A stretch of DNA of 34,462 bases from an uncultured Bacteroidales bacterium. GTDB taxonomy: Bacteria > Bacteroidota > Bacteroidia > Bacteroidales > WCHB1-69. A program made the position numbers and the translations under genes. The stretch spans positions 1-34,462 of the forward strand of contig CAJOKR010000049.1 in assembly GCA_905235135.1 (NCBI GenBank). Reading direction: 5' to 3'. Below the pieces are notes generated by a model. That model was not told where the DNA came from. It was given only the letters and a program-made list of their open reading frames with translations, and did not search any database. Below, piece by piece: positions 8,348-23,381 of this stretch (its first letter is position 1; the number at the start of each line of letters is the position of its first letter).

Positions 8348-11300
8348 ATGAAAAGAGTTAGTTTACTTTTGTTCGCAATTGTGTTCGCCATTGCAGGGCT
8401 GAACGCGCAGACCGTAGTCTTGAATGAGAATTTCTCTAACATTACGGATAGTACCGTCAGCCCTATAACCAACACGTTAGATTCATACACGCAGATGCCA
8501 GGTTGGAGTGGAGACTGGGTCTATCCGAGCAATGGCAAAGTAAAAATCGGCAAAGCGGCCGAAGCAGGATATATCCAAACACCTGCACTTGACTTGTCGG
8601 GCAATAACGGGCAGTTTTTCGTGACCTTCGATGCGAAAGCTTGGACTAACGATGCCACCAGTCTCATCGTGGTTGTTGACGGCGTTCCTTATACAGTGAG
8701 TGGTCTTAGCACTACGACTTTCAACACATTCTCTTTACCGTTCTCTGGTGGTACTTCGCATACAGTTATTAAATTCCAAGGTTCCCAAGTTAGCCATGGT
8801 CGCTTTTTTCTCGACAACGTGGTTGTCACGGTGGGAATGTTTGTGGACACTATTCCTCCATTGTTAATCGGGGCTACGGCATCAGCAAATTCACTCCAAG
8901 TTACATTCAGTGAAGATGTTGACCACATATCTGCTGAAAACATCAACAATTATTCCCTTGATCACAACATTTTCGTGACTTCCGCAACCATAACAGGAAG
9001 TAGTGTGGTCACGCTGGACCTATCTCCCTCATTGGTTGATGGTACCATCTATAACTTAACTGTTAACAATATAGCAGATACTGCTGGCAATATTATGCAA
9101 CCCTGCACAATATCATTTACATATTATGAGTGGAACGGTGAGTACTCTCCCTGGACAAATGGTACGGGCACAGAATCAGATCCCTTCCTAATCGAAAACG
9201 TCCAGCAACTTACCTATCTCGCCTACCGTGTGAACAACGGTTTGGATGCCGCCGGAGGTCACGTCTCCAATCACGATCTATATTACAAGCTGATGACAGA
9301 TGTAAATCTCAACGGAAGTGAGAATTTTCAATGGACACCGATAGGATATTGGATTTCTGAAAACAATTATTATTCTTTCGGTGGTCATTTCGATGGAAAC
9401 AACCACACTGTCTCAGGTTTATTTATTAACAGTGATGCAAATCGAGTAGGGTTTTTCGGTTATGTGGATGGGGCTGAGATTAAGAATTTAAGTGTGAGTG
9501 GAGATACAGTAGCTACAATAAGTGCATATGCTGGAGGAATTGTTGGTTACGCTCATGCCAGTACATTGAAAGATTGTAATAATCATTGCAACGTTATTAA
9601 TGCCGCTTTTTTGGGCGGCATAGTAGGATATGCCAGAGGAGCAACTTTCATTGATAATTGCTTTAATGTTGGTAATTGTATTTCTTCCCATTCTTCCTCT
9701 TGCCATTCTGGAGGTATTGCTGGGTATATCTATACTAATTTAACAATCACCCGTATCAACAACTGCTACAACAAAGGAAATGTTTCTTCCTCTTATAACT
9801 CTGATAGTTATTATTACTCAGGAGGTGGAATTGCGGGGTGCGTTAGTGGATCAGGAGAAGCTATTATCATCAATTGTTATAACTTAGGTAATGTTTCTTC
9901 GTCATCATCTTCTAAAGGAGGAATAATAGGGAGTGACAACACATATTCGTTATCAGTTATAAATTGTTATTATTTAGAAAGTTGCGGAGGCAATAACAAC
10001 TACGGTGGTTCACCCATGTCCTCGTCCGCCATGCAAACAGCAGATTTTGTCACAATATTGAACAACGGTTCCTGCGCGTGGGAACAAGACCTGCCACCGT
10101 ATGTAAATGACGGATATCCTGTTTTAACCATGATAATGGACAGTGCCTACACCGAACTCGCAACAGATTTAACGGCAACATCTGCCACGCTACATGGTTC
10201 TATCACAGTGGAACATGCCACAATCACTTCCAAAGGCTTCGAATACAGAGTATTGGGGTATTCAACCTTTACCTCAGTCAACGTTACAAACAATGATGAT
10301 ACATTTTTTTACACATTGAATGGACTTGCACCGAACACTACTTACGAATACAGGACATTCGTAAACGTGGCAGAATGTCCCTACACTTCTTACGGCACCA
10401 CCCAAACCTTCGAGGTCTCTTGGCTGAATGCGGACACTATCCTCATCTATGATACAGATATGTTACAGTGGGTGTCCAACCAGTGTAATAGTGGCACTAC
10501 CTTTGTGGGAAAATACATCAAGCTGATGAACAACATTATACTGCCACTCAACCAACCCAACAATATGACCTCTATCGGTGAGTATCCCAACCATCCTTTC
10601 AAAGGTACATTCGACGGCAACGGTATGACTATCACCAACCTGTATATCGACCAGCCAAACCCTACCAAGGTTTCTTCGGTTATACGCTGAACGCCAATTT
10701 GTATGAGGTGGGATTGGTGAATATCACCGCCAGTGGACGAAACTACACGGGTGGCATGGTGGCTTACGCAGAAAACACTTACATGCGCGATTGCTACGTG
10801 AATGGCGGAACTCTTTTCGCCCTTAGCTATTGCGGTGGTTTGGTAGGATATCAAACCGAAGGAACAAATTCCATCATTTCAGGATGTTATAACACCTGCA
10901 CGGTGAGCGGAAACCACTATGTGGGCGGATTGGTCGGTTTCAGTAACTATGCCACCGTGCGCAACAGCTACGTCGCTGCCAGTGTCACAGGCCAAGGAGA
11001 TGGCATCGGGGCCATCATCGGCGGGGCTAACGAGGTGCTGATGTATCATTGCTACTTTAATGACTGCATCACCGGTCAGACAAGTGCCATCGGCGAGAAC
11101 AACTTCAAAGACTACGAGGGGATGACTACAGCACAAATGCGCGATTCCGCTTTTGTAGCCACCCTTAACCAAGGACTTACCGTTCCTGTTTGGAAATCCG
11201 ACTATGTCGTCCCTATCAACAACGGTTTCCCGATTTTAATCTGGCAATATTCTGATGCAGAGCCGTGTGACGCGCCAAGCAACTTGTCCGCTTCCGTCAA

Positions 11301-11832
11301 CGACAATTCGGCCACATTGAGTTGGAATGGTGGTGAGAACGCCAGCTATTACGTCGTGGAATACGGGACAAGCGGCAGTGACACACATACGGAAAATACA
11401 AGCAACCATCAATTGATGATCAACAACTTGCAGAATGGAAACTATTTCTGGCGGGTAAAGTCCGTCTGTTCATTCGGTGAAAGCAATTTTGTGAACGGAA
11501 ACACCATCACCGTCGGCATCGAAGACCACAACCTCGGCGCGTCCATGAAAGTCTATCCCAACCCGACCACCGGCGTTGTCAAAGTAGAATGTACAATGAA
11601 CAATGGACAGGCGGGGACGGTGGAATTTCAATTGTTCGATGCGTTCGGACGGTTGTTACGGACAACCGACGTTGTAGGGGCGAATAATTATTCGTCCCTA
11701 CGGACGGACCCACACGGTTCCTCCGTACAAACCACGCAAATCAACCTCTCCCATTACGCCTCCGGCATCTATTTCATCAAAGCAGTGGCGGACGGAAAGG
11801 TGATGGCCGTGCGGAAGGTAATAAAAAATTAA
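8348..11832 (+). CDS. T9SS-sorted GLUG-repeat surface protein, with one frameshift
   Basis: A signal peptide ('MKRVSLLLFAIVFAIAGLNAQ') opens the protein. A jelly-roll/choice-of-anchor-like domain (~25-165) and an Ig-like SbsA-type domain ('DTIPPLLIGATASANSLQVTFSEDV' region) follow. Many GLUG-type repeats ('GGIVGYA', 'GGIAGY', 'GGLVGF', each near '-NCYN-GNVSS') come next. The C-terminal part has a fibronectin-III-like domain ('APSNLSASVNDNSATLSW') and a type A T9SS sorting domain ('MKVYPNPTTGVVKVE' to 'GIYFIKAVADGKVMAVRK'). The first frame stops at 10690; the second, needed from about 10672 ('GFFGYTLNANLYEVGLVN'), runs to 11832. One missing base near 10660-10672 explains this. Uncorrected, the product would lose its sorting signal. 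The family suggests an exported, cell-surface adhesin-like protein; its ligand is unknown. A 28-base palindromic repeat is inserted in frame at 11674-11701. Confidence 0.8.
11674..11701 (+). repeat. 28-base palindrome, GGGGCGAATAA subtype, inside the T9SS sorting domain
   Basis: The element runs GTAGGGGCGAATAA to TTATTCGTCCCTAC and is a near-perfect palindrome. It lies within the sorting-domain coding sequence and is codon-aligned, reading GTA GGG GCG AAT AAT TAT TCG (VGANNYS). The same subtype sits in the same frame at 16753 in an unrelated gene. Confidence 0.88.
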
Positions 11833-11848
11833 AAAATTCAGAATGAAT

Positions 11849-11878
11849 GGGCGCGGCCGGTGGTCGCGCCCGTTTTTG
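11849..11878 (+). terminator. Terminator of the T9SS surface protein gene
   Basis: GGGCGCG (11849-11855) pairs with CGCGCCC (11865-11871), with extra inner pairs, and is followed by GTTTTTGTT. It lies 17 bases after the stop codon. Confidence 0.85.
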
Positions 11879-11906
11879 TTACACAGGATAACGATTGGCG
11901 AGTGTT

Positions 11907-11934
11907 GTAGAGATGCAAAATTTTGCGTCTCTAC
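11907..11934 (+). repeat. 28-base palindrome, GAGACGC subtype
   Basis: The element starts GTAGAGATGCAAAA and ends TTTTGCGTCTCTAC, a 28-base near-perfect palindrome just downstream of the terminator. Other copies of this subtype lie at 14725 and 22444. Confidence 0.88.
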
Positions 11935-12088
11935 GCGTGCGGAACACGTCATTTCTGGCCCTTGCGGGGTAATCCTTTCCGTTATTGTGTGCCCTTGCGT
12001 GTATGGGGTTCCGTTTGGCCCGTACTTGCAAAACCATTTCGTTAATGCGTGGAGTTCGTAAAGACGAGGATTTTTCGGTAATGCAGGG

Positions 12089-12231
12089 TGGCCAAACGGA
12101 ATGGAGGTGTTTTTTCCGATATTTCTGTGCCCACCGTTATCCGGTTAATCGTTGCCGCCTGCCGTTTCGAAAAACTCACGCATCGGCCACCCCTGCTCAA
12201 ACGACAGCGCCCCCTCCATTCCGTTTGGCCA
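12089..12231 (+). repeat. 19-base perfect inverted repeat
   Basis: TGGCCAAACGGAATGGAGG (12089-12107) is the exact reverse complement of 12213-12231. A second, imperfect pair lies just outside/inside it: GCAGGGTGGCC at 12084 and GGCCACCCCTGC at 12185. The 105-base interior carries no gene. Confidence 0.85.
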
Positions 12232-12509
12232 CAAAAGCGAGACAGCAACTCGCCAGAGCAGTCATTGACGAAAAAGCTCGAAGGCAACTCGCGAGGGCAA
12301 ACGTGCCAAACGGAATCTCGTGCACGCAAGGGCGGGATATTACGAAAGAGCAGGATACCCGCAAGGGCAGAATATTGCGGAAAGAGGCATCTCGCCAAAC
12401 GGAACCCCATGCACGCAAGGGCACGAGATGTCGGAAAACAACTGATTGGTCGTGTGGTTGTGGATTTTCCCGTCCGGGTCCCGTCGCATCCCAATTCATT
12501 CATCGTTCC

Positions 12510-12554
12510 TTCATCGCTTTATTCATCGCTTTATTCATCGCTTTATTCATCGCT
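12510..12554 (+). repeat. 12-base tandem repeat, 3.75 copies
   Basis: The unit TTCATCGCTTTA is repeated exactly three times and then partially (TTCATCGCT). It ends 25 bases before the -33 element of the OPT promoter, so copy-number changes could alter promoter context. Confidence 0.9.
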
Positions 12555-12579
12555 ACGTTGTCCTGGCAAAAATTCCTTC

Positions 12580-12610
12580 TTGCGGGGGCAACGTATTTTT
12601 TTTATTTTTG
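12580..12610 (+). promoter_or_regulatory. Promoter of the OPT transporter gene
   Basis: TTG (12580-12582), 20 bases, then TATTTTTG (12603-12610) matches the Bacteroidota -33/-7 pattern. The leader to the ATG at 12710 is about 95 bases long. Confidence 0.65.
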
Positions 12611-12709
12611 CAGATTGTTTTTGACGGAAGGCAGAGTGGGGGAGTGGAAGCGGGTGATTCCGTCGGGAAATGTTTTGCCGAAGATGATAAATAATTGAAA
12701 ATTAACAAT

Positions 12710-14722
12710 ATGGAAGAAGAAAAAACTACGATTGAAGAACCCGAAAACGAAATCAAACTTCCCGAAAACGCGTATCGGGAGCTCAAGGAGGGCGAAGAGT
12801 ATAAGCCCATTCTGCTGAGCGACAGAAATTATCCCGAACTGAACGGCTGGACCATCTTCTGGGGCATCCTGATGGCGGTCATCTTTTCCGCCGCCACGGC
12901 CTATTCCGGTCTGCGCTTCGGTCAGGTCTTCGAGGCGGCCATCCCGATTGCCATCATCGCAGTGGGTATCTCCACCATCGCGAAACGGAAGAGCCCACTG
13001 TCGGAAAACGTGATTATCCAATCCATTGGCGCCAGTTCCGGCGTGATTGTGGCAGGTGCCATTTTCACCCTGCCGGCCATCTACATCATCAAGGAGACCA
13101 ACCCCGTGGCGGGCGCGGAAATCCAGGTCAATTTCTTCCAGATTTTCATGTCGTCGCTGCTTGGTGGCTTCTTAGGCATCCTTTTCCTGATTCCATTCCG
13201 CAAGTACTTCGTCTCCGACATGCACGGAAAGTACCCGTTCCCCGAAGCAACTGCCACCACCGAGATCATCGTGTCGGGCGCGAAAGGCGGCAACCAGGCC
13301 AAGCTGCTGTTGATCAGCGGTTTGGTGGGCGGTCTTTACGATTTCCTGATGACAACCTTCCACTTCTGGGCCGACACCATTTCCACCCGCATGACGGGCT
13401 GGGGCGAGCAGTTGGCCATGAATCATAAGTATGTCTTTAAGATGAGTGCGGAGTCCATTCTGTTAGGCACCGGCTACCTGATCGGTCTCAAATACGCCGC
13501 TGTGATCTGCGCAGGTTCAGCTCTTTCCTGGTGGGTGCTGACCCCACTGTTGGGCCATTATGGTATGGTTGAGCTGGACGGTGTGCAAACGGCCATGAGC
13601 ACCCTCGATCCCGACTTAATCTTCTCTGGTTATGTGCGTTACATCGGTATCGGTGGTATCGCGATGGCTGGTATTCTCGGAGTGATTAAATCCGCAGGAG
13701 TCATCAAAAAGTCCATCGGCGTGGCGGTGAAGGCCGGTAAAAATGCTACCGCTTCCAACGAGGTGTTGCGTACACAGCGCGACCTCTCCATGAAGATCAT
13801 CCTTTTCGGTTTCCTCGCTGTCATCGTGATGATGGTGCTGTTCTTCCTCTTCGGCGGTATGCAGATGAACCTCAAGCAGGTGCTGGTGGCTCTGTTGGTG
13901 GTCTTCTTGTTCGCCTTCTTGTTCACCACGGTTGCGGCCACGGCTATTGCCACGGTGGGTACTAACCCTGTCTCCGGCATGACGATGATGACGCTGATTC
14001 TCAGCTCCTTCATCCTCGCTTCTGTGGGTTTGAGCGGTGCTACGGGCATCATCACCGCATTGGTGGTGGGCGGCATTGTCTGTTCGGCACTTTCCATGGC
14101 CGGCGGCTTCATCACCGACCTGAAAGTCGGTTACTGGATCGGCACTTCGCCGTACAAACAGCAGGCCTTCAAATTCGTGGGCACCTTCGTCTCCGCACTG
14201 ACCGTCGGTGCAGTAATTATGTTGCTTTCAAAGACTTACGGATATACGGGTGAGAACGCCCTCGTGGCCCCGCAGGCTAACGCCATGGCAGCCATCATCG
14301 AACCGATGATGTACGGCGGTTCTACCCCGTGGATTCTCTACATTGTGGGGGCCGTTTTGGCCATCCTGCTCGATGTAATCGGCGTTCCCGCATTAGCCTT
14401 CGCCCTCGGTATGTTCATCCCGTTGCAGCTCAACCTTCCGTTGCTCGTCGGCGGATTCCTGGCATGGCTCGTGAAGACCCGCAGCACGGATGAGGCCATC
14501 AACAAGAAACGCGCCGAGAAGGGCACACTCCTCGCCTCCGGTCTGCTTGCAGGCGGTGCCATCATGGGCGTCCTCAGCGCCATCCTCAAATACGCCGGCG
14601 TCGAACCCACCTTCATGGCCGACTATATCGGATCCCCGATGTACAACATCCTCGCCATCGTCATGTTCGTGGCACTGTGCACCTATTTGGTGGTTCATGC
14701 CACGCATACGGAGAAACAATAA
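12710..14722 (+). CDS. OPT family oligopeptide transporter
   Basis: This 670-residue inner-membrane protein belongs to the OPT superfamily, which imports oligopeptides or metal chelates using an ion gradient. A short acidic N-terminus ('MEEEKTTIEEPENE') precedes the first helix. At least a dozen hydrophobic segments follow. Family blocks include 'AYSGLRFGQVFEAAIPIAI', 'GKYPFPEATATTEI', 'TVAATAIATVGTNPVSGMT' and 'MFIPLQLNLPLLVGG'. I chose the ATG at 12710, preceded by an A-rich stretch, rather than an upstream in-frame TTG at 12695. The substrate cannot be told from sequence. It has its own promoter and is followed directly by a palindromic repeat at 14725-14752. Confidence 0.92.
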   Translation: MEEEKTTIEEPENEIKLPENAYRELKEGEEYKPILLSDRNYPELNGWTIFWGILMAVIFSAATAYSGLRFGQVFEAAIPIAIIAVGISTIAKRKSPLSENVIIQSIGASSGVIVAGAIFTLPAIYIIKETNPVAGAEIQVNFFQIFMSSLLGGFLGILFLIPFRKYFVSDMHGKYPFPEATATTEIIVSGAKGGNQAKLLLISGLVGGLYDFLMTTFHFWADTISTRMTGWGEQLAMNHKYVFKMSAESILLGTGYLIGLKYAAVICAGSALSWWVLTPLLGHYGMVELDGVQTAMSTLDPDLIFSGYVRYIGIGGIAMAGILGVIKSAGVIKKSIGVAVKAGKNATASNEVLRTQRDLSMKIILFGFLAVIVMMVLFFLFGGMQMNLKQVLVALLVVFLFAFLFTTVAATAIATVGTNPVSGMTMMTLILSSFILASVGLSGATGIITALVVGGIVCSALSMAGGFITDLKVGYWIGTSPYKQQAFKFVGTFVSALTVGAVIMLLSKTYGYTGENALVAPQANAMAAIIEPMMYGGSTPWILYIVGAVLAILLDVIGVPALAFALGMFIPLQLNLPLLVGGFLAWLVKTRSTDEAINKKRAEKGTLLASGLLAGGAIMGVLSAILKYAGVEPTFMADYIGSPMYNILAIVMFVALCTYLVVHATHTEKQ

Positions 14723-14724
14723 TC

Positions 14725-14752
14725 GTAGAGACGCACGGCCGTGCGTCTCTAC
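14725..14752 (+). repeat. 28-base perfect palindrome, GAGACGC subtype
   Basis: GTAGAGACGCACGG is followed by its exact reverse complement, ending GCGTCTCTAC. It begins 3 bases after the OPT stop codon and could also act as a transcript-end hairpin, although no T run follows. Confidence 0.9.
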
Positions 14753-14781
14753 AATAACCCATAACCAATAACCATTAAGAA

Positions 14782-15399
14782 ATGCATATTGCCGTCGCCG
14801 GAAATATCGGATCCGGAAAAACAACATTAACAGGGATGCTGGCCAAGCATTACGGATGGGAGCCCCTCTACGAAAGCGTGGAGGACAACCCGTACCTCGC
14901 CAGCTTTTACCAGGATATGCAACGCTGGTCGTTCAATATCCAGATTTACTTTTTGAACAGCCGCTTCCGTCAGGTGCTGGACATCCGTCAGCGCAAGAAG
15001 GACGTGATTCAGGACCGGACGATCTACGAGGATGCCTACATCTTCGCGCCCAACCTGCACCGGATGGAGCTGATGGCCTCGCGCGATTTCGAGAACTACG
15101 CCTCGCTGTTCGAGCTGATGAAGAAGTTCCTGCAACCGCCGGATCTGCTCATCTACCTCAAGGCGGACGTCGAGACGCTCATCTCGCAAATCCTCAAGCG
15201 CGGCCGCGCCTACGAGGGCGACATCAGCCTGTCGTATTTGGAGAATCTCAACAAGCTCTATAACGACTGGATTGAGAACTACAAGGATGGAAAACTTCTT
15301 GTGGTGGATGTCAACAAGTTGAAATTCGCCGAACGGCCCGAGGATTTCGGGGTGATTATCGAGAAAATTGATACCGAATTGTACGGTCTGTTCAAATGA
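14782..15399 (+). CDS. Deoxynucleoside kinase
   Basis: This 205-residue cytoplasmic kinase of the dNK/dGK family phosphorylates deoxynucleosides with ATP in the salvage pathway. It has the P-loop 'GNIGSGKTT' (residues 7-15) and the family 'ESVEDNPYLASFY' block (~31-43). The 'QDRTIYEDAYIFA' motif (~77-89) carries the DR pair of the active site, and the lid-region 'LKRGRAYE' is present. Substrate preference cannot be read off with confidence. Its stop overlaps the kdsB start by 4 bases (ATGA), so the two are translationally coupled. Confidence 0.92.
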   Translation: MHIAVAGNIGSGKTTLTGMLAKHYGWEPLYESVEDNPYLASFYQDMQRWSFNIQIYFLNSRFRQVLDIRQRKKDVIQDRTIYEDAYIFAPNLHRMELMASRDFENYASLFELMKKFLQPPDLLIYLKADVETLISQILKRGRAYEGDISLSYLENLNKLYNDWIENYKDGKLLVVDVNKLKFAERPEDFGVIIEKIDTELYGLFK

Positions 15400-16136
15400 G
15401 AGATTTCAACGTTTTTGGCATTATCCCCGCACGGTACGCCTCATCGCGGTTCCCCGGCAAACCGTTGGCGCTGATCAACGGCAAACCGATGGTGCAATGG
15501 GTGTATGAGCGGGTGCAGTCGTCGGAGGTGCGCGACCTTGCGGTGGCCACCGATGATGAGCGCATAGCGGATTGTGTGCGCGGATTTGGCGGTAAGGTGG
15601 TAATGACCTCCCCCGACCATGCTTCCGGCACCGACCGCTGTGGCGAAGCTGCCTTGGCGATGCAACCGGCTGATAACGATGTGGTTATCAACATTCAGGG
15701 GGATGAGCCTTTGATTTCCCCGAAGGAGATTCACCTGCTCGCCAGCGCCTTCGAAGACCGTTCCGTGCAGATTGCCACGCTGGTGAACCCTTTCCACGAT
15801 GATGCGCTGTTGCAGAATCCCAATGTGGTGAAGGTGGTGAAAGCGAAAAACGGCAACGTGCTCTATTTCAGCCGCCTGCCAATTCCGTATCTGCGTGGTG
15901 AAAGCGCCGTCGCCCCGAAGCACTACTACCGCCATATCGGCATCTATGCCTACCGTTACGGTGTCCTCCGACAGATTGTGCAGCTCCCGACTTCCGAGTT
16001 CGAAAACAGCGAGAAACTCGAACAGCTCCGCTGGCTCGAAAACGGCTACACCATCCGCGCACTGGAATGCGACTACCAAGGGATTGGGGTGGATACCCCG
16101 GAAGACCTTGCATTAATTCAGAATGTTGAATTATGA
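15396..16136 (+). CDS. kdsB: 3-deoxy-manno-octulosonate cytidylyltransferase (CMP-KDO synthetase)
   Basis: This 246-residue enzyme makes CMP-KDO from CTP and KDO, activating KDO for lipid A-core assembly. Clear signatures are 'IIPARYASSRFPGKPLALI' (nucleotide binding, residues 8-26), 'VATDDERI', 'GTDRCGEA', 'INIQGDEPLI' and 'YFSRLPIPYLRG'. The C-terminal 'RWLENGYTI' and 'GVDTPEDLAL' blocks are also present. Length is normal. The gene overlaps the upstream kinase by ATGA. Its presence supports a Gram-negative outer membrane with KDO-containing lipopolysaccharide. Confidence 0.97.
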   Translation: MRDFNVFGIIPARYASSRFPGKPLALINGKPMVQWVYERVQSSEVRDLAVATDDERIADCVRGFGGKVVMTSPDHASGTDRCGEAALAMQPADNDVVINIQGDEPLISPKEIHLLASAFEDRSVQIATLVNPFHDDALLQNPNVVKVVKAKNGNVLYFSRLPIPYLRGESAVAPKHYYRHIGIYAYRYGVLRQIVQLPTSEFENSEKLEQLRWLENGYTIRALECDYQGIGVDTPEDLALIQNVEL

Positions 16137-16152
16137 TTATACTCCTTGAACA

Positions 16153-16218
16153 GCCTCGAAGAGGCAAAACGCGCGAAGCGCAATTAACCCCACACAAGGC
16201 GAAGCCGCAGTGTGGGGT
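16153..16218 (+). repeat. Three consecutive hairpins with GAA loops
   Basis: GCCTC-GAA-GAGGC (16153-16165) and GCGC-GAA-GCGC (16171-16181) are followed by a larger hairpin. Its 9-base arms ACCCCACAC (16187-16195) and GTGTGGGGT (16210-16218) enclose GGC-GAA-GCC (16198-16206). The cluster fills the kdsB to HU/SPOR gap. No T run follows, so simple termination is doubtful. Confidence 0.7.
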
Positions 16219-16248
16219 CGTAAATCGCAAACGTTAAACTTAAACCCA

Positions 16249-17733
16249 ATGATACCCTACATCCTCAAAACCCTCCAAAAGGAAGACCACGTCTTCATCG
16301 AGCGGCTTGGTGAATTCCGGCTGCGGATGAAGCACGCGGAAATCAAAAAGGACTCCGTCTATCCTCCTTATAATGAGGTGGTTTTCTCGCCGAAAGAGAG
16401 CGAGGAGAACAACTTCGCCCTCGCCAATTTGGTCAGTCGCGAGAAGCAGTGCCTTTTCACCGAGGCCAACGAGATGGTCACGGCCTGGGTGGATGAACTG
16501 CTGTCCGCCCTGCAGCACAACAAGTCCGTCACCTACGAGGGCTTCGGCACGTTCATGCTCGACAAGAAGGGGAATCTCTCGTTCGAGAACGAGATCATCC
16601 CGCAGCTGAACAGCCTTTTCGAGGGGATGGAGCCGATCGAGTTAGTGCATCCGATTGCGGCTGCGGTGATTGAGGAAGAGGAGACAATTAATGAAGAAGA
16701 AGAGGTGAAGGCTGTTGAAACAGAAACGGTCGAGGAACCTGTCGCCGAACCGGTAGGGGCGAATAATGATTCGCCCGTGGAACCGGAACCTGTTGTTGAA
16801 CCAGAGCCCATTAAGGAACCGGAACCTGAAGTTGTTTCTGAGCCTGTTGCAGAACCGGAACCTGTTAAGGAACCCGAACCAGAAGTTGTTGCTGAACCAA
16901 TCGTTGAAGAAAAACCTGAGGTTATTCCTGAACCTGTCGTTGAATCTGAGCCCATAAAAGAGCCTGAACCTGTCGTTGAACCTGAACCAATCAAGGAACC
17001 TGAGCCAGAAGTTGTTTCTAAACTAGTTGAAGAACCTGAACCAATTGTTGAAGAAGAACCCGAGGTTATTCCTGAACCAGTCGTTGAACCTGAACCCATT
17101 AAGGAACCGGAACCTGAAGTGGTTCCTGAGCCTGTTGTAGATTCTGACGACGATGATGAAGATGAGGATGACGAGGAGGATGAGGAAGAAGATGATGATG
17201 TTGACGAAAAGAAACGTCACCGTCTGGCATGGCTGTGGATACTGTTGCTGATTCTCGCCGTGTTGGGTGCGCTCGGATACATCTTCAAGGACAAAATCAC
17301 CGACTACTATCATCAGTGGAAAGAGAAGAAACAGCCTGTGGAACAGGTGGTTACCACGGATGAGGCAGTGAATGAGACAGTCGCGGAACCGGAAACGTTT
17401 GTGGAGCCGGAGACCGTCGAAAACGAGCCCGAAACCGTTGAAGAGCCCACTCCCGAAACATACACGCCCGAGGTGATGAAACAGACCGCCGATGGCAAGT
17501 ACAACTACGTCCGCTTCGAGTCCGGACACTTCTACGCGATTGCGGGCAGCTTCCCCGGCGAGGCCGACGTGGAGCGCCATATCCGCCAGAAAAAACTCGA
17601 CCAATACTCGCCCGTGATTGTGAAACAGGACGGCGTAAGCAACCTCCGTGTTTGCATCGGCATCTTCGACACGGAAGAGGAGGCGGAAAGTTTTGCCAAA
17701 GGGGTTAGTTCGAGCTATTGGGTACTGAAATAA
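16249..17733 (+). CDS. HU-CCDC81/SPOR domain envelope protein
   Basis: The 494-residue protein starts at the ATG at 16249. Residues ~1-125 match the bacterial HU-CCDC81 N- and C-terminal repeats ('[18 protein letters not shown]', '[19 protein letters not shown]'). A long Glu/Pro-rich spacer (~140-300) repeats blocks such as '[13 protein letters not shown]', then becomes an Asp/Glu run. A single transmembrane helix ('[20 protein letters not shown]', ~326-346) follows. The C-terminus is a SPOR domain ('[20 protein letters not shown]' to 'SYWVLK') that in the family binds denuded peptidoglycan at division sites. The predicted topology is a cytoplasmic HU-like part and a periplasmic SPOR, linking DNA or cytoplasmic partners to the wall; that role is inferred. 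A 28-base palindrome is inserted at 16753-16780. Confidence 0.87.
16753..16780 (+). repeat. 28-base palindrome, GGGGCGAATAA subtype, inside the HU/SPOR gene
   Basis: GTAGGGGCGAATAA is followed by the degenerate second arm TGATTCGCCCGTGG. It is codon-aligned as GTA GGG GCG AAT AAT GAT TCG CCC GTG (VGANNDSPV, residues ~169-177). It breaks the Glu/Pro repeat pattern. The reading frame is the same as in the copy at 11674. Confidence 0.82.
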
Positions 17734-17746
17734 TAACGTTATTACA

Positions 17747-18473
17747 ATGACAATCAACCTGAAATCTCATATTCCAAACACGATAACCTGCCTGAATCTG
17801 GTATGTGGCTGCTTCTCCATCATGTCCTCGCTGAACGGCAACCTGACCTTCGCGGGCATCTGGATCGTGACGGCCAATCTTCGACTTCTGTGACGGTCTC
17901 AGCGCCCGTCTGCTGCACGTCGCCTCCGACATCGGCAAGGAGCTCGATTCTCTCTCCGATGTGGTTTCTTTCGGGGTCGCCCCGACGATGATCGCCTACA
18001 AGTGGCTCACCATCTGCTATCTGCAGATGGCACCCGCCGCGCAGACGACCTTTGCCTCATACATGACCTACTTGGTGTTCCTCGTGCCGGCACTCTCGGC
18101 GGTGCGACTGGCAAAGTTCAATCTTGATACGGAACAAACTGAGAAATTCATCGGGATGCCGACGCCGGCCAATGCCCTGTTTTTGGGCTTCATTCCCGCC
18201 GCAGCCGAGCATATCGCCATCCTCAACAACTTTTGGGTGGTGCTCCTTTTCGCCATCTTCTTCGCCATCCTGCTGGTTAGCCCAATCAACATGATCTCCC
18301 TGAAATTCAAGAACTTCAAACTCACAGGCATGAACATCGCCCGCTTTCTGATTCTGCTGGTCGGCATCATCCTTTTCCTTGTTTTCAAGTTGGGCGCGTT
18401 CCCGCTGATCATCTTCGGCTACCTGCTCATCTCCATATTTTATCACACTTTAACGAATTTGGACGTATTATGA
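17747..18473 (+). CDS. pssA: CDP-diacylglycerol-serine O-phosphatidyltransferase, with a frameshift
   Basis: This inner-membrane enzyme makes phosphatidylserine, the precursor of phosphatidylethanolamine. The first frame from 17747 begins 'MTINLKSHIPNTITCLNLVC', the usual PssA N-terminus. After '...AGIWIVTAN' (about 17878) the frame is lost. The correct continuation 'IFDFCDGLSARLLHVA' lies in another frame and runs to 18473. That part has the complete CDP-alcohol phosphotransferase motif: DG at 17892, AR, G, and two further Asp ('DGLSAR...GKELDSLSD'). Several transmembrane helices follow. A 2-base loss, or 1-base gain, at 17875-17883 explains the break. The gene is normally essential and the motif is intact, so I suspect a sequence error. 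The stop overlaps the next ATG. Confidence 0.85.
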
Positions 18474-19057
18474 AGTATAAATCATTGGCATTATATTGCG
18501 GTTCTTCCACAGGCAAAAATCCCGCATACGCACAGGAAGCGGCGCGTTTTGGCAAGTTGTGCGCCCTGAAGCAGCTGACGCTCTATTACGGAGGTGGTTC
18601 TATCGGGCTGATGGGAGCTGCGGCCGAGGCTTCGCTCAATCACGGGGGGAAAGTCATCGGGGTTGCCCCGGATTTTTTCGCCCAGGGCGAGGTACTGGCC
18701 ACCAATCTCACCGAGATGATCATGGTAAAGACAATGAGCGAGCGCAAGCAGCTTTTGGAAGAAAGAGCCGATGCGTTTGTGGTTTTCCCCGGCGGCTACG
18801 GCACGATGGACGAGCTTTTCGAAATGGTCACGGACGCGCAGTTGGGACTTCATTTCAAACCCATCGCCATCTATAACTATATGGGATTCTACGACTTGCT
18901 GATTCAACAATTAGACAAGTTTATGGAAGAGGGCTTTCTGCGTCCGTTCCACCGCAACTTGCTGATTCATGCGGAGAATCTGGATGAACTGTTCTACAAA
19001 TTGGAGGTTTACGAAAACACCAATGACCATACTTGGTTGGAGAAAATCAAACACTAA
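18470..19057 (+). CDS. LOG family protein (TIGR00730-type Rossmann fold)
   Basis: This 195-residue protein belongs to the LOG ('lonely guy') family. Members hydrolyse nucleoside 5'-monophosphates, including cytokinin ribotides, to base and ribose phosphate. The phosphate-binding 'YYGGGSIGLMGA' is at residues ~39-50. The family signature 'PGGYGTMDELFE' is at 107-118, with the catalytic Arg/Lys region 'MSERKQLLEERADAFVVF' before it. The start overlaps the pssA stop (ATGA), so the two are coupled. The physiological substrate in bacteria like this one is uncertain. Confidence 0.92.
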   Translation: MKYKSLALYCGSSTGKNPAYAQEAARFGKLCALKQLTLYYGGGSIGLMGAAAEASLNHGGKVIGVAPDFFAQGEVLATNLTEMIMVKTMSERKQLLEERADAFVVFPGGYGTMDELFEMVTDAQLGLHFKPIAIYNYMGFYDLLIQQLDKFMEEGFLRPFHRNLLIHAENLDELFYKLEVYENTNDHTWLEKIKH

Positions 19058-19069
19058 AATCTTGACAGC

Positions 19070-20230
19070 ATGTTATTTAAGGATGTCTTAGTCGATTCCG
19101 AACTCAAACAGAAACTCATTGACCTCGCCCGTCAGGGGAGAGCGGCGCACGCGCAGTTTTTCCTGGCACAACCCGGCAGTCATGCGCTTGCGCTTGCAAT
19201 TGCCTACGGACAATATCTCTGCTGCGAAAATCCCGGCGAGCACGACTCCTGTGGCGAATGTCCGTCATGCAAGCAGTTTGCCAAATTGTCACATCCCGAC
19301 CTGCACCTCTATTTCCCCAACTGTACGACTAAATCCGTGAAAAAAGACCCCGATTCGAGCCAGTTCATCAACGAATTTCGGGATTTTGTGCTGAAAAATG
19401 ACTTCCATGTCGATATTAACGGGTGGCTGAATGTATTAGAGGGCGAGAACAAGCAGGCCAGCATCAACATCCGCGACTGTTCCGACATTTTGCGGCACAA
19501 CAACACGCGCTCGCATCAGGACGGCTACAAAATCTATGTCCTTTGGTGCATGGACCGTCTGTATCACACCGCCGCCCCGAAATTGCTGAAGACCCTCGAA
19601 GAACCCGAGCCAAACTCCGTGTTCCTCCTCATTTCGGAGGAGCCAGACAAAATCCTGAACACCATCCTGTCGCGCACGCAGCTCGTGAAGATTCCCCGTC
19701 TGACTGATGCGGACATCGCCCAGAAGTTGCAACTAACTTACCCGGATCTCACCCCCGAGGAGGCATCCGACATCGCTATTTTAGCCGACGGCAACTACAA
19801 CAAGGCTATCCACATTGTGACGGACAACGAGGACCAACGGGTGCTGTTGCAGCAATTCGAGGTGGTTTTCGACAGCATCACCGCGTTGGCGCAGAACAAG
19901 CCGTTGGCCACGGTACAGTACGACCAGGCGCAGTCGGTGCTCACGGAAGTGGTTGGCAAAGGTCGCGAATATCAGAAGCAGTACCTCCAGCTGATGCTGC
20001 GTATGTTGCGGAACATTCTGATGCTGAATACCAACAATCCGCAGATGCTGAAGGTAACCCATCAGGAGCAATCCGTCCTTGACAAATACCGCGGAATTCT
20101 CCATCTTAAGCAGGTTTCCGCCATAACAGCCCTCTGCAACGAAGCCCTCTACCACATCGCCCGCAACGGCAACACCTCCCTCATTCTGACCGATTTGTAT
20201 TTCAATTTAGTGAAGGAGTTTAGGGGTTAA
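19070..20230 (+). CDS. holB: DNA polymerase III delta' subunit
   Basis: This 386-residue clamp-loader AAA+ protein is related to DnaX. A zinc-binding cluster with Cys at ~51/52, 61, 64 and 67 ('DSCGECPSCKQF') is followed by 'SHPDLHLYFP'. The sensor region reads 'KIYVLWCMDRLYHTAAPKLL' then 'KTLEEPEPNSVFLLIS', and the arginine-finger motif reads 'ILSRTQLVKIP'. The Walker A site is degenerate ('AQPGSHALALA', without GKS). This is expected for delta', which does not hydrolyse ATP. It lies 12 bases after the LOG gene and is probably in the same operon. Confidence 0.92.
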   Translation: MLFKDVLVDSELKQKLIDLARQGRAAHAQFFLAQPGSHALALAIAYGQYLCCENPGEHDSCGECPSCKQFAKLSHPDLHLYFPNCTTKSVKKDPDSSQFINEFRDFVLKNDFHVDINGWLNVLEGENKQASINIRDCSDILRHNNTRSHQDGYKIYVLWCMDRLYHTAAPKLLKTLEEPEPNSVFLLISEEPDKILNTILSRTQLVKIPRLTDADIAQKLQLTYPDLTPEEASDIAILADGNYNKAIHIVTDNEDQRVLLQQFEVVFDSITALAQNKPLATVQYDQAQSVLTEVVGKGREYQKQYLQLMLRMLRNILMLNTNNPQMLKVTHQEQSVLDKYRGILHLKQVSAITALCNEALYHIARNGNTSLILTDLYFNLVKEFRG

Positions 20231-20259
20231 ACGGTTACACGGTTACACGGCTATGTGGG

Positions 20260-20277
20260 GGCGAATAATTATTCGCC
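20260..20277 (+). repeat. Palindrome core, GGGGCGAATAA subtype, upstream of batD
   Basis: GGCGAATAATTATTCGCC is a perfect 18-base palindrome and the core of the 28-base family. Its flanks have decayed (GTGGG to the left, TATGG to the right). It lies between holB and the sigma-54-like site. Confidence 0.82.
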
Positions 20278-20300
20278 TATGGGGGGATGATATACAATAA

Positions 20301-20316
20301 AGGCACGGTTTTTGCG
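20301..20316 (+). promoter_or_regulatory. Sigma-54-like promoter of the BatD gene
   Basis: AGGCACGGTTTTTGCG matches the sigma-54 consensus except at its first and last bases. The GG (20302-20303) and GC (20314-20315) have the correct 12-base spacing. The predicted start near 20327 is 19 bases before the ATG at 20346. Confidence 0.55.
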
Positions 20317-20345
20317 TTATAGCGACCGCAAAAAAAAATTTGAAT

Positions 20346-21743
20346 ATGAGACGTAATATCCTATTGATTGTGTCGCTGTTTTTGTTGGGCGGTTTTTATA
20401 TGGCGAATGCCCAAGACGAATCCGTCTGTACCGCCAAAGCACCGGCGGAAGTGGTTGTGAACCAGCAGTTTCAATATACCGTGACGACCTCTGAGAAGGG
20501 TACGATTTTGGATACCGACTTCGGAAAATTCGAGTTTGTGGGTGGACCGAGCATGGGATCCAGTACCTCCATTTCCATCGCCAACGGGCATACCGAACAA
20601 AGCACGCAATACACTTACACGTACATACTTACATGCAAGCGCGAGGGTACGTTCACGATTCCGGGCGTGTCCATATCCGTGGATGGACGCGTGCTGCGTA
20701 GCAATGCCGTGGAGGTTCGGGTAGTGAAGGCCGGTAAACAGCAACCAAGCCAGCAGCAAGACGACCAGTCGGGATTCTTCCACTTCGACTTTCCCGATTT
20801 TGGTGACTTTTTCGGCAACGACAGACGGCAACAGCCCAAATCGAAATCAGAAAGCGTTGAGTATAAGAACGATATCAAGAAGGAAGATATGTTCGTCAAA
20901 GCGGAAATTGCCCAAGCCGAAGCATGGCAGGGTGAGGCCGTGGTGGTGACACATAAGCTCTACATCAAGCAGGACATTCGGGGGTATGACATCGCCCGCG
21001 CCAACTATGCCGCCACCGACGCACTTTGGCTTGACCGCTTGGACAACAGCTACAGCGAGGAATCGACCGAGACCATCAAGGGCGAGCGTTACCACGTCTA
21101 TACCCTCCTGCAGACGGCGGCCTATCCGCTGAAAACCGGCAAAGTGACCATCCCGAAACTCGACCTCATTGTGCGCATCGGGGTGCCCGCCACGGTTCAC
21201 AACCCGTTCTGGGGCGACATGACAACCACCCGCGCCAAGGATTTCCGGCTGACCTCCAACGACCTGACTCTCAAAGTGAAACCGCTTCCGGGTGCCCGCA
21301 ACGACGGCAAAACGGAAACAGTCGGTCATTTTGACATTTCCGCCTCCATCAACAAGACGGAAGTACGTGTAAATCAGTCGTTCACGCTCACCGTAACGGT
21401 TTCCGGTAACGGCAATCTCCACCATATTGAGGCCAAAGACTTGAACATTGAATTCCCCACCGACTGTGATGTCACCTATCCGCGTGTCAGTCAACGCATT
21501 GGCGCGAAGGGCAACCTTGTGAGCGGCAGCAAGACCTTCCAGTTCACGCTGATTCCGCGCTCCGAGGGCGAATATTTCATCCCCGGCGCCACCTTCACCT
21601 ACTACGATGACGAGACGCAGACCTACAAGACCATCACCACACAGGATTTCCGACTTGACGTAAAGCCCGGCAGCATCTCCACCCCGAAAGACGAAGAGGA
21701 GAATGCCCCATCGAAGCCGAAGGGGAAGGTGTATAAAATTTAG
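20346..21743 (+). CDS. batD: BatD family protein, short form
   Basis: The 465-residue protein has a signal peptide ('MRRNILLIVSLFLLGGFYMA'). Several beta-rich modules of the BatD (Bacteroides aerotolerance, DUF-type) family follow: 'VVVNQQFQYTVTTSEKG', 'FVGGPSMGSSTSI', 'YTYILTCKREGTFTIPG', then 'AEAWQGEAVVVTHKLYIK' and 'SGNGNLHHIEAKDL'. A Gln/Phe/Asp-rich stretch lies near 140-170. Bat proteins are envelope proteins linked to stress tolerance. BatD homologues I know are longer and end in a transmembrane helix. This one stops at 'KGKVYKI' with no such helix, right before the heptamer array, so it may be truncated or a soluble paralogue. No batA, batB, batC or batE neighbours are present. The ATG at 20346 is chosen over a TTG at 20340. 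Confidence 0.82.
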   Translation: MRRNILLIVSLFLLGGFYMANAQDESVCTAKAPAEVVVNQQFQYTVTTSEKGTILDTDFGKFEFVGGPSMGSSTSISIANGHTEQSTQYTYTYILTCKREGTFTIPGVSISVDGRVLRSNAVEVRVVKAGKQQPSQQQDDQSGFFHFDFPDFGDFFGNDRRQQPKSKSESVEYKNDIKKEDMFVKAEIAQAEAWQGEAVVVTHKLYIKQDIRGYDIARANYAATDALWLDRLDNSYSEESTETIKGERYHVYTLLQTAAYPLKTGKVTIPKLDLIVRIGVPATVHNPFWGDMTTTRAKDFRLTSNDLTLKVKPLPGARNDGKTETVGHFDISASINKTEVRVNQSFTLTVTVSGNGNLHHIEAKDLNIEFPTDCDVTYPRVSQRIGAKGNLVSGSKTFQFTLIPRSEGEYFIPGATFTYYDDETQTYKTITTQDFRLDVKPGSISTPKDEEENAPSKPKGKVYKI

Positions 21744-21890
21744 TTTAAGGTTTAAGGTTTAGGGTTTAAGGTTTAGGGTTTAAGGTTTAAGGTTTAAGGT
21801 TTAGGGTTTAGGGTTTAAGGTTTAGGGTTTAAGGTTTAGGGTTTAAGGTTTAGGGTTTAAGGTTTAGGGTTTAAGGTTTAGGGTTTAAGA
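21744..21890 (+). repeat. 21-unit TTTARGG heptamer tandem array
   Basis: The array starts on the base after the batD stop codon and runs without interruption for 21 units of 7 bases. The units are TTTAAGG or TTTAGGG, alternating regularly from unit 11 to unit 20. The last unit is TTTAAGA. There are no spacers and no coding potential. It ends 7 bases before a palindromic repeat. Confidence 0.97.
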
Positions 21891-21897
21891 GACGGTT

Positions 21898-21947
21898 GTA
21901 GGGGCGAATAATTATTTGCCCAAAACAGGCGATAATTATTCGTCCCC
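21898..21947 (+). repeat. Two half-decayed palindrome copies, GGGGCGAATAA subtype
   Basis: GTAGGGGCGAATAATTATTT is followed by GCCC (21898-21921), and a second partial unit GGCGATAATTATTCGTCCCC lies at 21928-21947. The outer arms can pair with each other, forming one larger hairpin. The second unit overlaps the 3' end of the minus-strand methyltransferase gene and supplies its last codons and TAA stop. Confidence 0.82.
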
Positions 21948-23198
21948 GATTTTATGTGTTTGCAGGATGACCTTCGAACCATTCCAAAGCGTGCATCCGA
22001 ATAAGTAAGACTCATTCCCATCTTTGATTTTCAGCGTTTTCCGTAATTCTTCCGCCGTTAACGGGAAATTGCGCACGGCGATGCTGGCGCTTTCGAGCTG
22101 CGAGAGTTCCTTAGCTGTTTTTCGCGGGTGGAACTCGAGCAAAGTCTCAATGCGGAAAATGCGGCCCGGAAAATTCTCACGTAATTCATTGGTGGTGAAT
22201 AAGTTAGTGTTTTTCGCCAATTTCGAAATCTGGAACTGTTGCGAAAGGGCATTGAAAATGCCGGCCTTCATCACGGCAGCGTTGGGTTCGTAGAGGTAAG
22301 TGCCCAATTCCGTGGCGATGTGAGGTGGGGTGGTGCGTTCGGTTTCAAGAGTGGTTTCAACACGGGTAATGGCGTTTTTGTTAATATCGACGGCAACGAT
22401 GGTTGGGTTCATTATGGCGATATCCGTTTCGATTGGGTCCGTTGTAGAGACGCGGCGCATTGCGTCTCTACAGGTGCCGTTAATCATTTCGTTTCCCGTT
22501 TTCAACAAAAACACCACCTCCTTGCATTCCCCTTCCACGGCCACCACGTGCACGGCGTATGTCTCCGGTAAATCCCGCAATGTTTGGGAAATGTCGATCA
22601 TTGGGGACATTTTGACCATCAAGATGTTACAACGATCCAACAGGGCGGATTTCCATTCGAGGAGGTTGGGGGTGCAGTCCGCCAAGGAGACCACCCGCCG
22701 TCCGTGCGTGTCGCGTCGGGACGGATCCAAGTAGATCATATCCACAGGCTCGATAGCGGCGAGGTTATCCTCCATCGTTCCGTTGACGATATTAACATTG
22801 TTGATATCCAGTACTTTGCAGTTATGTTGAAAAAGTTCGCATAGTTCCTGTTGTGGTTCCACGTAGTAGCCTTTCCCGAACTTTTTAGCGAATGCGGCGG
22901 TATCGACCCCGAACCCGCCGCTGAAGTCCGCAAACAAATTCCCTTTCACCAAGGATGCCTTATACTCAGCCGTTTGCGACGATGAGCACTGTTCCATGGA
23001 GACCTTTTTCGGGTAAAGGATGCCCTCAATGGCGTACCATTCGGGCAGCTTCTCTTTGGCCTTCTGCCGTCCCGCGATCTGCTGCAGCGCCATGGGCATA
23101 TCCACCTGCGGGTCTTTGGAGGGGTGCAGGGCGAGGTGGGACACGTCGTCGGAGGCGTGGGCGGAGATGTAGTGTTGGGTGGGTTCGTTAATGTTCAT
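21936..23198 (-). CDS. THUMP-like, class I SAM-dependent methyltransferase (PG_1098 type)
   Basis: This 420-residue protein is typical of Bacteroidota. An N-terminal helical region is followed by a Rossmann methyltransferase domain. Its SAM motif I is 'FADFSGGFGVDTAAFAKKFG' (~89-108), the acidic motif II is 'YYVEPQ', and the catalytic-type motif is 'YLDPSRRD' (~156-163). The C-terminal half holds the PG_1098 ferredoxin-like and THUMP-like domains. DPSRRD plus the THUMP-like part suggests RNA methylation; the target is unknown. A 28-base palindrome is inserted in frame at 22444-22471 (peptide 'CRDAMRRVST'). The final codons 'GDE' and the stop come from another repeat copy. A TACCTTTG -7 box lies at 23374-23381. 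Confidence 0.87.
   Translation of the reverse strand: MNINEPTQHYISAHASDDVSHLALHPSKDPQVDMPMALQQIAGRQKAKEKLPEWYAIEGILYPKKVSMEQCSSSQTAEYKASLVKGNLFADFSGGFGVDTAAFAKKFGKGYYVEPQQELCELFQHNCKVLDINNVNIVNGTMEDNLAAIEPVDMIYLDPSRRDTHGRRVVSLADCTPNLLEWKSALLDRCNILMVKMSPMIDISQTLRDLPETYAVHVVAVEGECKEVVFLLKTGNEMINGTCRDAMRRVSTTDPIETDIAIMNPTIVAVDINKNAITRVETTLETERTTPPHIATELGTYLYEPNAAVMKAGIFNALSQQFQISKLAKNTNLFTTNELRENFPGRIFRIETLLEFHPRKTAKELSQLESASIAVRNFPLTAEELRKTLKIKDGNESYLFGCTLWNGSKVILQTHKIGDE
22444..22471 (-). repeat. 28-base palindrome, GAGACGC subtype, inside the THUMP-like methyltransferase gene
   Basis: GTAGAGACGC, 8 central bases and GCGTCTCTAC form the element. On the coding strand it reads as 'CRDAMRRVST' with no stop. 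It falls between the methyltransferase domain and the C-terminal domains, a likely loop. Confidence 0.88.
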
Positions 23199-23373
23199 AG
23201 TGTTCTTTGTTTATGTCATAGGGCTCGACTTCGCCTTACCATAGGTTAACATAGGTCGGGATTTCAGTCCTTCCGTCATTTCCTAATTTCCCACAAGGTG
23301 GAGGGATATATTTTCTATTGTATTCATAATCAAAGTATTGGTGTAGTCACCATGATGGTTGGGGACTGGGGTG

Positions 23374-23381
23374 CAAAGGTA
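23374..23381 (-). promoter_or_regulatory. -7 box of the methyltransferase gene
   Basis: On the minus strand TACCTTTG matches TAnnTTTG, about 175 bases before the start at 23198. The rest of the 23199-23483 gap shows no gene or strong structure. Confidence 0.4.

What the first reader, a model, noticed from the sequence alone, without database searches (positions are those of the whole stretch)
11674..22471. A family of 28-base GTAG...CTAC palindromes inserted between and inside genes
Seven copies in two subtypes: GTAGAGACGC-N8-GCGTCTCTAC (11907, 14725, 22444) and GTAGGGGCGAATAA plus its complement (11674, 16753, core at 20260, 21898). All are about 28 bases with the same ends. The copies at 11674 and 16753 lie in unrelated genes yet are codon-aligned identically (VGANN-S), and the copy at 22444 is read through as CRDAMRRVST. 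In-frame tolerance plus conserved ends points to a mobile, REP/MITE-like element that can add peptide linkers. Palindromes of the GTAGAGACGC type are, to my recollection, abundant in some Bacteroidota and Cyanobacteria; the mover is not identified.
Basis: partly seen in the sequence, partly recalled or inferred. Interest (0 to 1): 0.78.

Follow-up and report, generated by a model that had tools for sequence, protein, structure and literature searches.

The report
Transposase-linked palindromic DNA repeats
The window holds copies of a 28-letter mirror-image DNA repeat that is scattered through this gut-type bacterium's genome, sometimes inside genes as a ten-residue peptide, and whose different versions go with different small transposase genes: a rich new example of a known kind of mobile repeat.

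Summary
The repeats are real. Four of the seven reported copies are complete 28-nt GTAG-N20-CTAC palindromes; three are degraded. The genome (a 3.26-Mb MAG; named relatives are ruminant-stomach Bacteroidales) holds 202 exact copies against 0 for the reversed pattern. They are REP elements of the 'double-foot' type (Quentin 2018). A RAYT (TnpA_REP, HUH-Y1) gene lies on another contig of the same genome; Pfam missed it. [quoted passage not shown] Flanking copies share the in-gene core in 31 of 38 cases. Core type follows the RAYT tree (19 types, 20 changes; shuffles 35-41). So the arms are shared, but RAYT lineages have their own cores. Sampled copies lie mostly between genes, close to 3' ends; those in ORFs avoid the TAG phase. 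At two surveyed sites the element was exchanged wholesale for one with another core (core differences 0-2 or 7-10, never 3-6). Not shown: an insertion event, a clean empty site, enzyme activity. Most proteins depart from the subclass 2.4 Y motif. New member of a known kind.

The parts
11674..11701 (.). complete 28-nt double-foot REP, GAATAATTATTC core; inside ORF 10699-11832(+) within its Por_Secre_tail (T9SS sorting) domain, in frame as VGANNYSSLR
11907..11934 (.). 28-nt double-foot REP, AAAATTTT core, one change in an arm (GAGATG); between ORFs
14725..14752 (.). perfect 28-nt double-foot REP, ACGGCCGT core; just after the TAA stop of the OPT transporter ORF (ends 14722), about 30 nt before the deoxynucleoside kinase ORF (14782)
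16753..16780 (.). degraded REP (GAATAATGATTC core, right foot lost) in frame in ORF 16210-17733(+) as [10 protein letters not shown]
20255..20282 (.). degraded REP (GTGG...ATGG feet, GAATAATTATTC core) in the gap after the DNA pol III delta' type ORF (ends 20230)
21898..21947 (.). degraded REP half (21898-21921) followed by a second partial inverted half (21928-21947), same core type
22444..22471 (.). 28-nt double-foot REP with a mixed core (GCGGCGC left half, GCATTGC right half); in frame in ORF 21936-23198(-) as CRDAMRRVST

Best explanation
These are REP elements of the double-foot kind: 28-nt palindromes with GTAG at the 5' end of either strand. They are dispersed in trans by RAYT proteins (TnpA_REP, single-strand HUH-Y1 nucleases) encoded elsewhere in the genome. 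Inferred steps: when a strand is single-stranded (most likely the lagging-strand template), the palindrome folds into a hairpin, RAYT binds foot plus stem, cuts beside it and joins a copy elsewhere. The arms (GTAGAGACG) are shared by most types; the central 10-12 nt is the identity tag that goes with one RAYT lineage. Most copies survive in intergenic DNA near gene ends. Copies in genes survive where the reading phase avoids TAG; with the usual flanking T and A the unit would be 30 nt, that is ten codons (inferred, insertion length not measured). Shown: repeat family, RAYT-core association, in-gene and flank association, phase bias, genomic placement. Inferred: binding, cutting, insertion.
For: 202 exact copies, 0 in the control. 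Stable single-strand hairpins (five of five tested). RAYT on own contig C86, whose frame holds a slightly degraded AAAATTTT 28-mer, with two more degraded copies downstream. AAAATTTT is also the commonest core (32 of 138). In 66 distinct RAYT ORFs of the family, 39 hold a near-perfect in-frame palindrome, 39 of 42 in-gene copies lie between HUH and Y, and 31 of 38 flank copies match the in-gene core (shuffle mean 7.2, maximum 20 in 2000). Core type on the RAYT tree: 20 changes for 19 types against 35-41 in 200 shuffles. AAAATTTT copies outside the RAYT locus: mean 16.9 in the 9 genomes where a cognate RAYT was found, 2.0 in the other 95, p 1.8e-4. GGTGCATGCACC copies outside the RAYT locus occur in 4 of 5 genomes with its RAYT and in 3 of 99 others, p 1.2e-11. 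The RAYT profile finds PDB 4er8 (TnpA_REP), E 2.4e-9. 100 of 138 copies are intergenic although 89% of the sample is called ORF; in-ORF phases are 26, 6, 1. TnpA_REP cuts single-stranded REPs at C|T, with GTAG as guide (PMC8266576, passages).
Against: No clean empty site or target duplication was found. Only the AAAATTTT type has a RAYT found in this genome (88% complete). Two other own-genome RAYT-like genes (L018, L019) carry GGAG-footed palindromes instead. G064 (52 copies) and G052 (42) have many AAAATTTT copies, yet none of their profile-found RAYT places (3 of 3 and 4 of 4 fetched) carries that core; G043 has such a RAYT and 0 exact copies. 17 of 66 RAYT ORFs have no qualifying palindrome in the gene or within 700 nt, and 11 further loci were dropped before that count. 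Own RAYT scores below the curated NCBIfam cut-off (39 against 80 bits) and has no Pfam match. The copy-number tests do not correct for kinship.
Confidence: 0.86

Rival explanations
1. Static hairpins kept by selection as transcription terminators or mRNA 3' stabilisers, not mobile.
For: Copies lie near 3' ends (median 15.5 nt), over-represented between convergent genes (30 of 100 intergenic copies; 19% of intergenic bases) and under-represented between divergent genes (12 of 100; 20%); the 14725 hairpin is followed by a T-rich tail on the minus strand.
Against: Terminator-like sites in the region are no more than chance (16 against 15.1). By my count, 19 of 138 lie at least 20 codons inside ORFs. 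Core types follow separate RAYT lineages. No Rfam match at gathering scores in 11000-23500. A secondary role as RNA hairpin is not excluded.
Confidence: 0.06
2. Binding sites of a chromosome-organising or regulatory protein, spread by selection for the site.
For: Palindromes with fixed arms and genome-wide spread.
Against: A single binding protein would not explain many different cores, each tied to its own RAYT lineage, nor palindromes inside RAYT genes.
Confidence: 0.03
3. MITEs of an ordinary DDE insertion sequence, or REPs moved by the IS200-like (subclass 1 type) Y1 proteins L016/L017.
For: Own genome has two such Y1 genes (IS200-like judged by motif).
Against: No 28-mer lies in the L017 locus, and one degraded copy lies about 1.3 kb from the L016 gene. 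Of 29 further Y1 loci (L020-L048) only L032 and L035 hold a 28-mer. Feet, size and in-gene copies match RAYT REPs. No search for DDE elements with matching ends was made.
Confidence: 0.04

Closest known systems
Double-foot REPs of TnpA_REP subclass 2.4 (Quentin et al. 2018, PMC6006769; abstract, sections 12-14 and 31 and passages read)
   Same: GT[AG]G at the 5' end and C[TC]AC at the 3' end; copies flank the RAYT gene and lie in frame inside it between HUH and Y motifs; found in Bacteroidetes.
   Different: Most proteins here have YIENNV-like, not YIxNNP (6 of 66 fit by a rough regex). Many different cores on nearly constant arms within one bacterial family, and wholesale exchange of elements at fixed sites; I did not see these two points in the parts read.
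GTAG-tagged REPs (Di Nocera et al. 2013, PMC3733652; abstract, passages and section 15 read)
   Same: GTAG foot, intergenic near 3' ends, uni- and convergent placement, intragenic in-frame copies, TAG of the foot used as a stop codon; different REPs at about the same site of recB in two Xanthomonas species.
   Different: That survey lists GTAG repeats for Proteobacteria, Cyanobacteria, Chloroflexi and the PVC group, and names Bacteroidetes only for CGTC repeats; its tag is described as unpaired and at one end.
REPIN-RAYT systems of Pseudomonas (PMC3116915, PMC8049555; search listings with the start of the abstracts only)
   Same: RAYT in trans, short palindrome populations within a genome (partly recalled).
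   Different: REPINs are inverted pairs of REPs (recalled); here mostly single complete palindromes, pairs not surveyed.
Rickettsia palindromic elements (recalled; mentioned in section 15 of PMC3733652)
   Same: In-frame palindromes that add peptides to unrelated genes.
   Different: RPE-1 is described there as longer; RPE-4 and RPE-6 as CGTC repeats; no RAYT link is given in that section.
Small dispersed repeats of cyanobacteria (Elhai et al. 2008; seen only as a reference, content recalled)
   Same: Very short dispersed mobile repeats.
   Different: Not compared by sequence.

Membership tests
Double-foot REP | GT[AG]G at 5' end and C[TC]AC at 3' end | tested here: met
   four of seven window copies; 202 genome-wide
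Double-foot REP | folds into a hairpin as single-stranded DNA | tested here: met
   five of five sequences given, -8.9 to -12.5 kcal/mol, z -5.1 to -8.0
Double-foot REP | copies flank a RAYT gene (REPtron) | tested here: met
   29 of 66 RAYT ORFs have one within 700 nt; own RAYT has two degraded copies downstream, its other side is the contig end
Double-foot REP | REP in frame inside the RAYT gene between HUH and Y motifs | tested here: met
   39 of 66 ORFs; 39 of 42 in-gene copies between the motifs; own RAYT copy is degraded
TnpA_REP subclass 2.4 | Y motif YIxNNP | tested here: not met
   6 of 66 by a rough regex that misread several rows; own protein has YIENNV
TnpA_REP subclass 2.4 | HUH motif NH[IFV]H | tested here: met
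   43 of 66; own NHIH
TnpA_REP subclass 2.4 | WQ motif | tested here: met
   present in own protein; in the 66 it was part of the selection regex, so circular there
RAYT / TnpA_REP | homology to known TnpA_REP | tested here: met
   profile of 23 to PDB 4er8 E 2.4e-9; NF047646 E 6.9e-10 for own protein, below its curated cut-off; one of eight given proteins (L149) over it
RAYT / TnpA_REP | cuts single-stranded cognate REP at C|T | not testable with these tools
   biochemistry; the flanking base is T in 65% and C in 19%
REPIN | two REPs in inverted orientation with a spacer | not tested
   not surveyed; one degraded pair at window 21898-21947
MITE of a DDE transposon | target-site duplication | tested here: inconclusive
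   378 elements with flanks: 10 with an empty-like relative, none clean

The most novel reading that the evidence does not exclude
REP sites here are lasting slots whose occupant is overwritten. An incoming single-stranded REP from whichever RAYT is active replaces the resident one in place, through the shared 9-nt arms or by RAYT cutting at the shared feet, so the position is inherited while the core records the history of RAYTs. Each RAYT gene carries its own substrate inside its reading frame as a linked, selection-protected master copy, and new enzyme-substrate specificities arise as the in-gene core and the enzyme change together.
Probability: 0.28. Interest if true: 0.72.

Novelty: new member of a known kind. 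Interest (0 to 1): 0.47.

Why it matters
To my knowledge REP movement has not been watched directly, and what sets which RAYT serves which REP is only partly known. This bacterial family offers a natural series: 66 related RAYT ORFs, 50 of them labelled with 19 core types on nearly constant arms, many carrying their substrate in their own gene. That makes enzyme-substrate co-evolution directly testable by swapping proteins and 28-mers in vitro. The exchange of whole elements at fixed sites suggests a replacement reaction that could be looked for. It also warns annotators that ten-residue peptides such as VETQNFASLQ, CRDAMHCVST or VGANNYSPLQ in Bacteroidales proteins can be repeat insertions.

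Tried and rejected
Pfam PF01797 as the RAYT probe: found four Y1 genes in the own genome, none with complete 28-mers close by, and missed the C86 RAYT (no Pfam match). A relative's RAYT protein (L066) used as probe found it.

Empty sites: searched in syntenic relatives, a close genome pair (about 17-19 kb of G082/G067 aligned), G064:C72 and others and by joined flanks. One search was spoiled by self-matches and re-filtered. 10 of 378 elements had an empty-like relative; the best for the window (14725 against L081) lies in a CCAATAA-type repeat tract, so its ends are ambiguous. Rejected as proof.

Chimeric cores as a general route: only the 22444 core is clearly half one type, half another among 138 (my reading of the list). 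Not general.

Left-right matching of the flanking bases (a longer palindrome or a duplication): 50 of 123 equal at -1 against 58 expected; rejected.

A Fisher test of GGTGCATGCACC presence against RAYT presence (p 6e-7) was set aside as circular, since the RAYT was recognised by its in-gene copy; copies outside the RAYT locus are used instead. The first AAAATTTT test (p 1.6e-5) was redone without locus copies (p 1.8e-4).

Structure of the 22444 protein: three-row alignment, mean pLDDT 31.9, unusable; no fold search was made. Rfam: no match. Viral contigs: 109 stretches hold the 28-mer, no RAYT-like ORF by regex. Peptide GAGLKPAPT in papers: none.
Full report
What was checked. The window is contig C49 of a 3,263,445-base genome in 118 contigs, 88% complete, 4.8% contaminated. 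Its nearest named relatives, by a CTP_transf_3 (kdsB-type) protein of the window, are Bacteroidales/Bacteroidetes MAGs, several titled rumen, omasum or abomasum of goat, sheep or yak, at 84-93% protein identity (L069-L084). Four of the seven reported copies are complete 28-nt palindromes, three are degraded. GTAGRGRCG is found 9 times in the window against 0.52 expected. The exact palindrome pattern occurs 202 times in the genome and the reversed control 0 times. In a sample of 1,043,777 bases (the window plus stretches, most of them chosen because listed copies lay there, so density is biased upward) there are 138 copies with at most two changes in the arms, 92 exact, and 0 in the reversed sequence.

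Anatomy. The arms are nearly constant (GTAGAGACG, less often GTAGGGGCG), the centre varies. Cores in the 138: AAAATTTT 32, ACGGCCGT 17, AATGCATT 15, CCATGG type 11, GAATAATTATTC 5, TTGCGCGCAA 5, GCGGCGCGCCGC 4, GGGGCGCGCCCC 2, and near variants of these for most of the rest. 82 of 138 have all six core positions paired and 41 have five. The five sequences given fold as stable DNA hairpins. The base before GTAG, read on either strand, is T in 65% and C in 19% (123 copies, both sides pooled), so TGTAG...CTACA, 30 nt, is the fuller consensus.

Placement. With a simple ORF caller (898 ORFs, 89% of bases), 33 of 138 copies fall in ORFs, 100 between ORFs and 5 at stretch edges. Of the 100, 58 are between tandem, 30 between convergent and 12 between divergent genes; by bases these classes are about 61, 19 and 20%. 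The median distance to a 3' gene end is 15.5 nt. In-ORF phases are 26 (GTA codon), 6 (xGT AGA) and 1 (TAG phase, at an ORF start and probably not coding). By my count from that list 19 of the 33 lie at least 20 codons from both ends; some of the rest are probably upstream of the true start. One copy stands 3 nt after a tRNA-Arg gene. This placement is what Di Nocera 2013 reports for REPs (section 15).

The mover. Pfam's Y1_Tnp found four genes in the own genome. Two (L016, L017) look IS200-like by motif; two (L018, L019) are RAYT-like but carry GGAG-footed palindromes. None explained the GTAG family. In a relative from another genus of the family (G009, L066) a RAYT fragment has GTAGGGGCGGGTTTGAAACCCGCCCCTAC in frame. 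That protein as probe matched in 25 of 40 genus genomes, among them own contig C86. In the 30 loci returned (94 kb) there were 49 28-mers, 0.52 per kb, against 0.13 per kb in the own sample with a slightly different pattern. A profile of 23 of these and related proteins found matches in 68 of 104 family genomes. It matches TnpA_REP, PDB 4er8, at E 2.4e-9; single proteins match NCBIfam's REP-associated tyrosine transposase, own protein below the curated cut-off.

RAYT lineages and cores. I took 93 loci; 11 had no ORF that fits my HUH plus WQ pattern (own L019, with its GGAG-footed repeats, is one of them), identical proteins were merged, and 66 ORFs remained, four of them of the L018 type. Not every place listed was fetched. 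39 of 66 hold a near-perfect double-foot palindrome in the gene, 29 hold one within 700 nt, 49 either. The own RAYT and its closest kin (L143, L145-L148) hold a slightly degraded in-gene copy that the strict count misses. [quoted passage not shown] in-gene phases avoid TAG except one copy (L168) at the gene's end, which appears to supply the stop codon. Of 38 flank copies in 19 loci with both, 31 have the in-gene core within two changes; shuffling in-gene cores among loci gives 7.2 on average and at most 20 in 2000. On a tree of the 66 proteins built without most of the linker, 50 labelled rows (five AAAATTTT labels set by hand; cores one change apart merged) with 19 core types need 20 changes, the minimum being 18; 200 shuffles need 35-41. 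The tree is a quick one with many weak forks.

Copy number follows the enzyme, with exceptions. AAAATTTT 28-mers outside the RAYT locus average 16.9 in the nine genomes where I found the cognate RAYT and 2.0 in the other 95 (p 1.8e-4). But G064 has 52 and G052 42 copies, and none of their profile-found RAYT places (3 of 3 and 4 of 4 fetched, some of them contig-edge fragments or distant kin) carries that core, while G043 has the RAYT and no exact copy. GGTGCATGCACC occurs in 8 of 104 genomes. Five of these have a RAYT place with it inside (for G023 by coordinates only, its frame failed my filter); copies outside the RAYT locus occur in 4 of these 5 and in 3 of the 99 others. Neither test corrects for kinship. 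Beyond the family, 51 of 395 phylum genomes (own included) have at least one GTAGAGACG-type copy; own 184, next 21.

Exchange at fixed sites. The gene with the 22444 copy has 25 orthologous rows (three pairs are the same genome twice). Ten distant rows (43-51% identity) and L069/L173 (69%) lack the peptide. Near relatives carry REP peptides of different types at about the same place: RDAPWHVST-like, YRDAKFCVST, HRRDAINRVPT (from a GTCG-footed copy) and the window's CRDAMRRVST. In a survey of 193 elements in 126 loci (RAYT loci left out, though L208/L209 still contain one), 44 pairs stand at sites with both flanks aligned: 25 differ by 0-2 of 12 core positions, 19 by 7-10, none by 3-6, and the 19 are still 5-6 of 6 paired. 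Three of the 25 are the same genome fetched twice. The 19 come from two sites only: a loop of T9SS sorting domains (L055, L056, L214, L216, L217, L079; ortholog and paralog rows mixed; Pfam tested for L055 and L056) and the gap before kdsB (L075 against L071). At the first, GAAT-type and GAGACG-type copies come with different bases just downstream, so older alleles may be involved; TTGCGCGCAA and CCATGG types share arms and nearby bases and differ in the core. The window's 11674 copy sits in a Por_Secre_tail domain too. Independent insertion into a tolerant loop is not excluded. Di Nocera 2013 reports different REPs at about the same site of recB in two Xanthomonas species.

What it is. By feet, size, hairpin, RAYT flanks and in-gene copies this is the double-foot REP type that Quentin 2018 ties to TnpA_REP subclass 2.4, including in-frame REPs in the tnpA_REP gene. 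The Y motif test for subclass 2.4 was not met by most proteins, so I call them 2.4-like. TnpA_REP cuts single-stranded REP at C|T with GTAG as guide (PMC8266576, passages); the single-strand, replication-linked route is from Quentin's discussion and is inferred here. I saw no paper that describes this family in searches (listings only); the library lacks most subscription journals.

Limits. No insertion event, target duplication or clean empty site was obtained; no enzyme was tested; the genome is an incomplete MAG; ORF calls are crude; the structure prediction failed.

Noticed in passing
window 21743-21887: Array of GGTTTAA/GGTTTAG heptamers in the gap beside the 21898 element.
   Followed up: no
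window 16780-17196: Glu-Pro rich 18-nt periodic repeat in the HU-domain ORF that also hosts the 16753 element; relatives L072 and L081 carry other 28-mers in a similar stretch.
   Followed up: partly
window 12510-12554: Three direct copies of a 21-nt stretch built on TTCATCGCTTTA.
   Followed up: no
L018:3-1253 (own C94) and L158 (G085): RAYT-like protein with a C-terminal Fic/DOC domain in one frame (L018: PF01797 plus PF02661; L158 judged by its similar sequence).
   Followed up: no
L019 (own C20:81564-84791): RAYT-like gene flanked, and overlapped at both ends, by AGGAG...CTCCT palindromes of a second, GGAG-footed REP family.
   Followed up: partly
L164 and L165 (G067, G082): RAYT linker made of DAINHNA repeats that differ by 42 nt between two close genomes.
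   Followed up: no
L321, L322, L323, L336, L342: Viral-collection contigs with two 28-mers exactly 1857 bases apart; no RAYT-like ORF there by regex.
   Followed up: no
L244:14112-14215 (own C20): A 28-mer starting 3 nt after a tRNA-Arg gene.
   Followed up: partly
L432 (G012:C179): A 63-residue RAYT remnant with HDHIIR and YIKNNV, no 28-mer in the stretch.
   Followed up: no
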